Shown here: positions 1,051 to 60,980 of the stretch, piece by piece
Layout: every line of letters begins with the position of its first letter
Position numbering within the stretch: the first letter of the stretch is position 1
Source: Terriglobales bacterium
GTDB lineage: Bacteria; Acidobacteriota; Terriglobia; Terriglobales; Acidobacteriaceae
Direction: 5' to 3'
DNA length: 64,000 nt
Assembly: GCA_035764005.1 (NCBI GenBank)
Contig: DASTZZ010000019.1
Coordinates: 124,001-188,000 of the forward strand
Program-made: the position numbers and the translations under genes
Notes under the pieces: generated by a model
Seen by the model: only the letters and a program-made list of their open reading frames with translations
Told to the model about the DNA's origin: nothing
Databases searched by the model: none

Positions 1051-4000
1051 TACACCTGCAGCACATCGCCTTCGCGCGCGACCAGCATGTAGAGGACTGG
1101 ATTTAGGAAAAAGCCGAGCAGCAGCCGCGAAATGAGTCCCGTGACAATCACGATCGCGAACGGCTTTTGCGTATCGGAGCCAATGCCGGTCGATAGCGCT
1201 GCGGGCAGCAGACCGAGGCAGGCGACGAGCGCCGTCATCATGATCGGACGCAGCCGGAGCAGTGAAGCCTCGCGCGTGGCTGTCTTGATGTCCATGCCCT
1301 CAATTCGGAGTTTGTTAATGTACGACACGAGAATCACGCCAGTCTGCACTGAGACTCCAACCAGCGCGAGCAACCCAAGTCCAGACGAAACGCTGAATGG
1401 CGTGTCGGTCAGCTTGAGCGCAATCAATGCTCCCACAGGAACAGTGAAAGCTACGCCTAACGCAATCGCGATCGGGTACTTGAAGTTCCCATAAAGGGCA
1501 AACAGGATAAAGAAGATCAGGAGCACGGCAAGAGGCCCGACAATGGCCAATTGATTACGCGCAGCAACGTACTGGCTGTATTCGCCGCCCCACTGAATTT
1601 CGTAGCCGACCTGCGGCGGTATCTCTTTGGCCACGCGACGCTGCGCATCGTGGATGGCGCGCGCCAGATCGCGCCCCTCGATGCTGAATTGCACGCCGAT
1701 GTAGCGCGAATTGTTTTCGCGGTAAATCATCGAAGCGCCGGTGCTCTCTTTGATGTTTGCCAGCTCCGTCAACGGAATCTGCTGGCCGTCAGGGGTACCG
1801 ACGAGCAAATTGCCGATCTGCTGCGCGCTGCTGCGGAACTGCGGCTGCATGCGCACGACCAGATCAAACAGCTTCTCGCCTTGTACGACCTGCGTGACTG
1901 CCTGACCTCCCACGGCTGATTGAATTACGGCTTCTACGTCGGCGACGTTGATTCCATATCGGGCAATTTTCTCGCGATCAACATCGATGAGCAGACTCGG
2001 CTGCCCGAGTTCGCGGACTACGGTAAGTTCGGTGAAACCCGGAGTGTCTTCAAGAATCTTTTTGATTCGCAGCGCTTTGTCTTGCAGCACATTCAGATCG
2101 GGTCCGTAAATCTTTACTGCCAGCGCGCTCTTCAGGCCGGTCAGCGCTTCGTCCACTGCATCTTCCGCCGGCTGCGTGTAGTTGAAGATGATGCCGGGAA
2201 ACGTAACCAGTTGCCGATTGATGGCCTCGGTCAACTCGGCTTTGTCGTGGATCTTTCCCTTCCAGGTCTTATCGTTGTAAGGCTTGAGGCCGACGTAGAA
2301 CTCACAGTTGTAGAACCCCGTAGGGTCGGTGCCGTCGTCGGGTCGTCCCAATTCGGAACCCACAACAGTTACCTGCGGATAGGACATGAGGATGCGTCGA
2401 ATCTGCGGAGCGATCTTGCTCGCTTCCTCAAATGAAATGGTGTACGGCATGGTGGCGCGCACCCAGAGCGCGCCTTCGTCGAGGTGCGGCATGAACTCGC
2501 CGCCGATGAATGGAACCAGGATCAGCGTGAGTCCGAAGATGATCACGCATGCCACGACCGTTGCCTTGGGACGGTCGAGGCACCAATCGAGCTGGCGCGA
2601 GTAGATGGTTTTGACGCGCTCGTAATATTTATTCGTCTTCTCCCGCAATCCATGTTTGAACCAGATCGAAGCTAGCGCCGGGACGAGGGTGAGAGTGAGA
2701 ATCAACGCGCCGATCAGGCCGAATGACATCGTGTCGGCCATGGGATGGAACAGCTTCCCTGCCGGACCGCTCAGCGCATAAATCGGCAGGAAGCCGGAGA
2801 TGATGACCGCGACCGAATAGAAGATGGGACGGTCGACATCTCGCGCCGCGCTCATGATGACTTCTGTGACTGTGTAGTCCTGGCCGGCACGCTCGGTGAG
2901 TTCGCGATAGATGTTTTCCATCATCACTACGGTGCCGTCGATCAGGATGCCGAAGTCGATGGCGCCGATGGAAAGCAGGTTCGCGGGAATGTTCTCTGCG
3001 TGCAGCAGAATGAAGGCAAACAGGAGGCTCAGCGGAATCGTGAGCGCCACGATGATCGCGGCGCGGAGATTCACCAGAAAGAAGATGAGGACAATCAGCA
3101 CCAGAATCATGCCGCGAATGAGATTGTCCTCAACTGTGTTCGTGGTGAGAGCAACGAGATCGCTGCGGTCGTAGAAGGGGCGAATCTTTACATCTTTCGG
3201 GAGAACGAGACTGTTCAGCTTCTCGGTCTGCTGCTCGACGCCTTTCAGCACCTCCTGCGCCTGCTCGCCGCGGCGCATGAGGATCACGCCTTCAACCGCG
3301 TCATCGTTATTTTGGAAACCGAACTCGCCGAGCCGCGGCGCGTGGCCGATGGTGACCTCGCCTACGTCCTTCACGCGCACGGGAACGCCTTTGTTGCTGC
3401 CGACGATTACGTTGCCGATGTCAGTCTGATCGCGCAGCAGACCCAGGCCGCGGACGTAGTAAAACTGTCCGCCCTGTGAGTAAAAACCTCCGCCGGCATT
3501 CGAGTTGTTGGCCGCAAGCGCATTCGTGACCTGCGGAACCGTGAGGTGGTATCCGTAGAGCCGCGATGGATCGAGCAGCACCTGATACTGCATGGTCGCG
3601 CCGCCGAAACCTGAGTCGTCGGCGACTCCAGGCACCGCCTTGTAGGCACGCTCGATGACCCAATCTTCGATGACCTTCAGCTCCTGCGGACTGCGATCGG
3701 GACTCTCGAGCACGTAGCGATACACCAATCCGCTGGGACTGAAGAGTGGCGCCATGCTCGGCGTTACACCGGACGGTAAAGTCGCGTCGCCCAGGCGCTC
3801 GAATACGACCTGCCGCGCCCAGTAGTCGTCCGCGCTGTCCTCAAACGTGAGGCGCACGTCGGAGAGGCCGTAGAGCGAGATCGATCGCATCACGACCATA
3901 TTGGGAATGCCGTTGAGCGCGAGCTCGAGCTGCAGCGTGATCTGTCGCTCCATCTCCTCCGCAGCGTGACCTGGCCATTGCGTGACGATCTCGACCATTG

Positions 4001-60165: not shown

Positions 60166-60214
60166 TGATTTTTGATGTTGCCTTTGCTCTTGCTCTTACA
60201 AAGCGAACCCCAAC

Positions 60215-60339
60215 CGCAAGGTGCTTCGGCGTTCGCCTCAGCATGACAAAGTTTTTATTTACTTCACGAAATTCTGTTTACATTTACGCCTTGTCATCCT
60301 GAGCCAAGGAGCAAAGCGACGCAGGCGAAGGACCTTGCG
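60215..60339. repeat. Repeat element with inverted CGCAAGGT ends (family E)
   Basis: CGCAAGGTGCTTCGGCGTTC...AGCATGACAAA on the left faces TTGTCATCCTGAGCC...GAAGGACCTTGCG on the right. The TTGTCATCCTGAG word is typical of intergenic repeats of these genomes. No ORF. It lies between plsX and the AhpD-like gene. Confidence 0.65.
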
Positions 60340-60446
60340 TTTGCTTTTCACACGAACTCAGAACTGCTGCAGTTTTTTTTCGAGTCATGCAAACCGCCCC
60401 GCTCATCCACATAAGTGAACTAATACTTTTGTCGGAGTCTCTACAC

Positions 60447-60980
60447 ATGCCCAGAATGGTTGGCCTTGAACGAGGCGAAGCTCCTTGGCATCTGCGCTGG
60501 TTCTACGGGATGATGCGCAAGATGTTCGGCAAAGATCTCACTCCAGCGAAGATTCAGATGCGCGTGCCCGGAATCGTTTGGGGCGGCATTGGAATGGAAA
60601 TGGCGCTGGGTCGCAAGCGCCGCGTCTCCCTGCGCTACGCTCAACTGGCAAAGATCAGGACGGCCGCTCGCATTGGCTGTCCGTTTTGAGTCGACATCAA
60701 TTCTGCCGTAGGCAGAAAAGCTGGACTTACTCCGGAGAAATTAGCTGCTATCCCTGGTAATGATCTCTCCGCGTTTACTGATGTTGAGCGGCTCGTGCTC
60801 GAACTTGCGGACGCAATGGCGTCAACGCCATCGAACGTCTCCGACGATCTCTACGCAAGGTTACGCGCGCAATTTTCAGAAGAACAATTGCTGGAACTCG
60901 GCGCGCAGATCGCCTTTGAGAACTTTCGCGCCAGGCTGAATCGAATCTACAACGCTGAGAGTGACCACCTGTATAGCTGA
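60447..60980 (+). CDS. Carboxymuconolactone decarboxylase/AhpD-like protein with in-frame TGA (candidate selenoprotein)
   Basis: Read through the TGA at 60687-60689, the frame gives 177 aa: MPRMVGLERGEAPWHLRWFY...ARIGCPF, then the TGA, then VDINSAVGRKAGLTPEKL... to a stop at 60978. The CMD/AhpD fold has a CxxC motif at this point (normally GCPxC), and the TGA occupies the second Cys, giving Cys-Pro-Phe-Sec. After the TGA the frame stays open for 96 codons of protein-like sequence with NDLSAFTDVERLVLELADA, a normal continuation of the family. A perfect hairpin follows the TGA (60701-60717). AhpD-like proteins use this motif to reduce peroxides or transfer thiols. The ATG at 60447 has GGAG 9 bases upstream. 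The alternative is a nonsense mutation, which needs one base change from TGC or TGT. Confidence 0.7.
60690..60720 (+). promoter_or_regulatory. SECIS-like hairpin just after the in-frame TGA
   Basis: TTCTGCC (60701-60707) and GGCAGAA (60711-60717) pair perfectly around a GTA loop. The stem starts 11 bases after the TGA and the loop 18 bases after it, inside the 16-37-base range I recall for bacterial SECIS apical loops. The loop starts with G, as the consensus asks. It lies inside the coding frame, as bacterial SECIS elements do. Confidence 0.55.

What the first reader, a model, noticed from the sequence alone, without database searches (positions are those of the whole stretch)
60447..60980. 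Candidate selenoprotein: AhpD/CMD-family gene with in-frame TGA at the second Cys of CxxC
The sequence shows one frame with a single TGA where the family carries its second redox Cys (GCPF-TGA-VDIN), followed by 96 open codons of family-like sequence. A perfect 7-bp hairpin with a GTA loop sits 11-27 bases after the TGA. Known biology: bacterial Sec insertion uses a SECIS hairpin right after UGA, and AhpD-like selenoproteins have been described in environmental bacteria. Inference: this is Cys-Pro-Phe-Sec, and automated annotation would split it into two genes or call it a pseudogene.
Basis: partly seen in the sequence, partly recalled or inferred. Interest (0 to 1): 0.9.

Follow-up and report, generated by a model that had tools for sequence, protein, structure and literature searches.

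The report
AhpD-like selenoprotein gene with SECIS hairpin
This soil-type acidobacterial genome carries a gene in which the stop codon TGA is almost certainly read as the rare amino acid selenocysteine in the active site of a small AhpD-like redox protein; this is a convincing new branch of an already known kind of selenoprotein, which standard gene calling would cut in two.

Summary
Window 60447-60980 (+) is one CMD/AhpD-like reading frame with a single in-frame TGA at 60687-60689 (GCPF-TGA-VDIN). A 7-bp hairpin with a GTA loop follows at 60701-60717. Seen alone this is weak: 29 TGAs in the window have comparable open flanks, and 3 of them have a comparable hairpin. Comparison is decisive. 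All 38 distinct genes of the clade have TGA at this codon, and all keep 6-7 of the 7 hairpin positions paired; 26 Cys homologues average 2.7. The stem arginine codon is AGA/AGG in 34 of 34, against 9% elsewhere in the same genes. More distant TGA homologues have compensated stems. The genome has selA, selB, tRNA-Sec(UCA), a selD that itself contains Sec, and a second paralogue with the same TGA and hairpin. In relatives, the gene tracks selA and selB (Fisher p about 1e-10 and 1e-9). The hairpin meets every published bSECIS constraint. AhpD-like CxxU selenoproteins (COG2128) are already known, and NCBIfam has a related '(seleno)protein' family whose cut-off this protein misses. It is a new subfamily member, not a new kind. 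Its substrate is untested.

The parts
60434..60437 (+). Probable Shine-Dalgarno GGAG, 9 nt before the ATG
   Evidence: sequence; inference
60447..60980 (+). AhpD/CMD-like selenoprotein gene, 177 residues, Cys78-Pro-Phe-Sec81
   Evidence: orthologues start and end at the same place
60678..60680 (+). TGT, Cys78, first residue of the CxxU motif
60687..60689 (+). TGA read as selenocysteine 81
   Evidence: TGA in all 38 distinct clade members
60701..60717 (+). Bacterial SECIS-type hairpin: 7-bp stem, loop GTA, 18 nt between the TGA and the loop
   Evidence: bSECIS model constraints in PMC13188914
60978..60980 (+). TGA, true stop codon; clade members end at about this place

Best explanation
The gene encodes a selenoprotein. 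SelB, carrying Sec-tRNA(UCA), binds the hairpin just after the UGA and makes the ribosome insert selenocysteine at position 81. The product is a 177-residue all-helical AhpD/CMD-fold protein with a Cys78-x-x-Sec81 redox pair at the start of helix 79-91. The most likely chemistry is that Sec81 acts as the nucleophile towards a peroxide or other oxidised or electrophilic substrate, Cys78 resolves it as a selenenylsulfide, and a cellular thiol or thioredoxin-type reductant regenerates it. Shown here by comparison: TGA conservation, coding on both sides, hairpin constraint and co-occurrence with the Sec machinery. Inferred: actual Sec insertion. Guess with family support: peroxidase or thiol-oxidoreductase activity.
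For: TGA at the same codon in 38 of 38 distinct clade members at 36-100% protein identity, across two acidobacterial families plus a Myxococcales MAG. The hairpin keeps 6-7 of 7 pairs in all 38, against a mean of 2.7 in 26 Cys homologues; stem Arg is AGA/AGG in 34/34 against 61/671 elsewhere in the same genes; stem Ser is TCT in 36/38 although TCT is 9% of Ser codons in the window. Pair counts: 94.4% paired, 9 cells changed on both sides, 0 of 500 shuffles as high. More distant TGA homologues have compensated stems, GCTGC..GCAGC and GCTAGC..GCTAGC. Substitution pattern is coding both before and after the TGA. Own genome has selA, selB, tRNA-Sec and selD, the selD itself with AAGUASKL. selB over cut-off in 33/36 TGA-bearing genomes against 7/34 others; selA 34/36 against 7/34. 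The SECIS model finds just two strong sites in the 5.1-Mb genome, this gene and its paralogue. Fold model pLDDT 93 matches AhpD-like structures with TM up to 0.87.
Against: No protein-level data. Two TGA-bearing genomes that are otherwise near complete (G118, G276) show no selB over the cut-off, though both have selA and tRNA-Sec; assembly gaps are the likely cause. In the 54% complete G027 no selA or tRNA-Sec and no selB over the cut-off was found. The local hairpin is modest by energy alone. The residues of the AhpD proton relay (Glu at -12, His at +4) are Gln and Asn here, so AhpD-type peroxidase activity is uncertain.
Confidence: 0.96

Rival explanations
1. A pseudogene or sequencing error: a Cys codon (TGC/TGT) has mutated to TGA and the frame is dying.
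For: One-base change from TGC/TGT would produce it; the assembly is fragmented (131 contigs).
Against: Same TGA in 38 distinct genes over deep divergence; coding constraint after the TGA in close orthologues, third-position changes 0.54 against 0.13 at second positions; no other stop or frameshift.
Confidence: 0.01
2. Two separate proteins or a truncated 80-residue product; the second half is translated from its own start.
For: Standard gene callers give only the first part (100-aa ORF 60387-60689).
Against: No ATG, GTG or TTG in frame before 60795, well inside the conserved domain; the break would fall within the redox motif and the helix 79-91.
Confidence: 0.01
3. UGA is read as Trp or another standard amino acid, by stop-codon reassignment or readthrough.
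For: An open frame alone cannot name the residue.
Against: The gene's own stop is TGA; tRNA-Sec, selA and selB are present and correlated with the gene; the Cys homologues carry Cys at exactly this position; a SECIS-type hairpin is conserved.
Confidence: 0.015
4. It is a selenoprotein but does not act on peroxides: for example a thiol-dependent reductive dehalogenase-like enzyme or a thiol-disulfide exchanger.
For: Glu/His relay missing; the profile and the fold both match the Bmp8 debrominase about as well as several peroxidase-related proteins.
Against: Bmp8 is not the best match; no halogen or other pathway genes next to the gene in the window or in relatives, where neighbours differ.
Confidence: 0.25

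Closest known systems
AhpD-like CxxU selenoproteins, COG2128/YciW (TIGR01926; 'AhpD-like 1' in the GOS survey PMC2398784; listed in PMC9312934 and PMC13188914)
   Same: CMD/AhpD fold, CxxU motif with Sec at the second position, bacterial SECIS after the UGA, Cys homologues known
   Different: Window protein scores 27.6 bits against TIGR01926, cut-off 81.8; forms its own clade centred on Terriglobia-type acidobacteria; relay residues Gln/Asn
NCBIfam NF053654 GroundWater_YciW, 'YciW-related (seleno)protein'
   Same: Best family match over the full length (E 2.5e-28, residues 1-176), family described as holding selenoproteins
   Different: 99 bits against a curated cut-off of 310; the paralogue (116), other Sec clade members (95-129) and a Cys homologue (145) also miss it
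PA0269 and Atu0492 AhpD-like proteins (PDB 2o4d/2ijc, 2gmy)
   Same: Closest solved structures by profile (E 5e-24 to 2e-21) and among the closest by fold; same CxxC position
   Different: Cys not Sec; PA0269 has Glu(-12) and His(+4) of the relay (PMC3141380), the window protein does not
Bmp8 debrominase (PDB 6ohi/6ohj)
   Same: Same fold, profile E 6e-16
   Different: Cys enzyme, 21% identity, other pathway

Membership tests
Bacterial selenoprotein | In-frame UGA within a conserved coding frame, aligned with Cys of homologues | tested here: met
Bacterial selenoprotein | bSECIS: loop 3-9 nt, stem 4-16 bp, G in the first two loop positions, 16-37 nt from UGA to loop, MFE at most -7.5 | tested here: met
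   loop GUA, 7 bp, G first, 18 nt, -9.1 kcal/mol; model from PMC13188914
Bacterial selenoprotein | selA, selB, selD and tRNA-Sec in the genome | tested here: met
Bacterial selenoprotein | Sec shown in the protein | not testable with these tools
   needs 75Se labelling or mass spectrometry
CMD/AhpD-like superfamily (PF02627) | Match over the gathering score | tested here: met
   33.6 bits against 23; fold TM up to 0.87
AhpD peroxidase with five-residue proton relay | Glu at -12 and His at +4 around CxxC | tested here: not met
   Gln66 and Asn85 in the window protein; the paralogue on C102 has Glu and His; relay from PMC3141380
NF053654 GroundWater_YciW | Curated cut-off of 310 bits | tested here: not met
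   99 bits; genome search 93 and 110 bits
TIGR01926 peroxidase-related enzyme (AhpD-like COG2128) | Curated cut-off of 81.8 bits | tested here: not met
   27.6 bits

The most novel reading that the evidence does not exclude
An undescribed AhpD-fold selenoprotein subfamily of soil acidobacteria whose window-type branch has lost the AhpD proton relay and uses the low pKa of Sec in its place, for a substrate other than peroxides. The relay-bearing Sec paralogue in the same genome gives a natural comparison. Against the 'Sec replaces the relay' part: the Cys homologues also have Asn at +4.
Probability: 0.15. Interest if true: 0.6.

Novelty: new member of a known kind. Interest (0 to 1): 0.4.

Why it matters
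It adds a coherent, so far unnamed branch of at least 38 distinct Sec genes to the bacterial selenoproteome, mainly in Terriglobia-type acidobacteria, which the two recent selenoproteome reviews I searched do not mention. Gene callers cut such genes at the UGA. The strongly constrained stem (rare AGA arginine and TCT serine codons) is a clear natural example of a SECIS imposing codon choice, and can serve to find more such genes.

Tried and rejected
Whole genome as file: not available. Single-sequence statistics: too weak to decide. The TAL-effector hits in the first PDB sequence search are repeat artefacts, each stretch insignificant. Gene neighbourhood as a clue to function: neighbours (plsX, a response-regulator-like gene, mutS2) are not conserved next to the gene in relatives. 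Plasmid collection: no match. One alignment held a wrong frame for L022 and was replaced. Sec as a substitute for the relay: weakened, because the Cys homologues also have Asn at +4. A structure count with a mistyped string was repeated; a family scan with wrong coordinates was repeated. Papers on acidobacterial selenoproteins: one Acidobacteriota genome with 3 known selenoproteins in PMC12013277 and 4 selenoproteins in 3 families in PMC1794560; neither text as searched names this subfamily, but supplements could not be read.

Full report
Observation. The frame at 60447-60980 (+) has a single internal TGA at 60687-60689, in GCPF-TGA-VDIN, followed by 96 open codons. TTCTGCC-GTA-GGCAGAA lies at 60701-60717. 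The translated protein matches Pfam CMD above its cut-off. By itself the pattern is not remarkable: the window holds 29 TGAs with similar open flanks and three of them have a hairpin of at least 7 bp, and the local fold has z = -1.8.

Machinery. The window's genome (5.1 Mb, 131 contigs, 97.5% complete) has selB, selA, selD and a tRNA-Sec with anticodon TCA. The selD frame has its own in-frame TGA in KAAGUASKLSP, the usual Sec site of SelD by general knowledge, so the genome has an independent selenoprotein.

Homologues. In 298 genomes of the order, 38 of the 40 best matches carry one TGA inside or carry it at the same codon in every case read; the remaining two are fragments (residues 1-55 and 1-80 of the query) that do not reach the codon. 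A scan of GTDB genomes adds further TGA members, including a Myxococcales MAG, and a separate set of Cys homologues (CPFCVDIN), mostly in Proteobacteria. In a 64-row tree the 38 Sec rows and the 26 Cys rows are split by one branch with 100/100 support. No Cys-containing member was found inside the Sec clade.

Hairpin. All 38 Sec genes keep 6-7 of the 7 pairs; the 26 Cys genes average 2.7. Amino-acid conservation does not explain it: recoding the same peptide with the window's codon usage gives about 3.7 pairs for the window sequence (p 0.008); the stem arginine is AGA/AGG in 34 of 34, against 61 of 671 arginines elsewhere in the same genes; stem serine is TCT in 36 of 38, though TCT is 9% of serine codons. 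These counts are not independent events, since the genes are related. Pair counting (36 of the sequences; two with a shifted stem left out) gives 94.4% paired with 9 cells changed on both sides, 0 of 500 shuffles as high, and all slid controls at 58% or less. More distant TGA homologues in the phylum have GCTGC..GCAGC and GCTAGC..GCTAGC, and an actinomycete MAG (L083, CPTU) has GTCGTCTC-GGC-GAGACGAC at a similar distance (sequence). The window hairpin meets all four bSECIS constraints printed in PMC13188914. A covariance model from the alignment finds two strong sites in the whole genome: this gene and a paralogue on C102.

Co-occurrence. Among 36 TGA-bearing genomes, selB exceeds its cut-off in 33 and selA in 34; among 34 others each does so in 7, the same 7 (Fisher 1e-9 and 1e-10). 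The comparison set was picked by list order and is taxonomically uneven. G118 and G276 lack a selB hit over the cut-off but have selA and tRNA-Sec.

Protein. The AlphaFold model (pLDDT 93, pTM 0.89; Cys in place of Sec) is all-helical, with the Cys-Pro-Phe-Sec motif at the start of helix 79-91. Best fold matches are AhpD-like proteins PA0269, 2prr and Atu0492. The AhpD relay (PMC3141380) needs Glu at -12 and His at +4; the window protein has Gln66 and Asn85, while the C102 paralogue has Glu and His. So the two selenoproteins of this genome may differ in chemistry. Peroxide or thiol-redox activity is an inference from the family.

Novelty. AhpD-like CxxU selenoproteins are listed in PMC2398784, PMC9312934 and PMC13188914. 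NCBIfam's NF053654, '(seleno)protein', is the nearest family but the window protein reaches 99 of the 310 bits required. The finding is a new subfamily member of a known kind. Interest is moderate.

Noticed in passing
own genome G000:C102:17053-17508 (+), L089 TGA at 1731: Second AhpD-like selenoprotein gene, 37% identical, CPF-TGA-IDLH with the hairpin TCTGC..GCAGA; keeps the relay Glu and His that the window protein lacks.
   Followed up: yes
own genome G000:C98:13144-14070 (-), L018: selD is itself a selenoprotein gene (KAAGUASKLSP).
   Followed up: partly
L083 (Actinomycetes MAG JAAEMS010000230.1), match 3001-3480: Distant CMD-like gene with CPT-TGA-LDGH and an 8-bp hairpin of unrelated sequence, GTCGTCTC-GGC-GAGACGAC, placed like a SECIS: another likely Sec gene.
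   Followed up: partly
L116, L117, L118, L119 (same phylum, other families): CxFU genes with compensated stems (GCTGC..GCAGC, GCTAGC..GCTAGC), showing the Sec family is wider than the order.
   Followed up: partly
L052 (QHQO01000187.1, titled Verrucomicrobia AV125): Gene 74% identical and nested among acidobacterial Sec genes in the tree: transfer or a mis-binned contig.
   Followed up: no
window 60209-60345: Intergenic inverted-repeat-like stretch before the gene (GTCATCCTGAGCCAAGGAGC...; facing ...CCTCAGCATGACAA), looks like a dispersed repeat element.
   Followed up: no
G110 and G022 (same genus / same family genomes): Have selA, selB and tRNA-Sec but no match to this protein: the gene is dispensable in Sec-decoding relatives.
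   Followed up: partly
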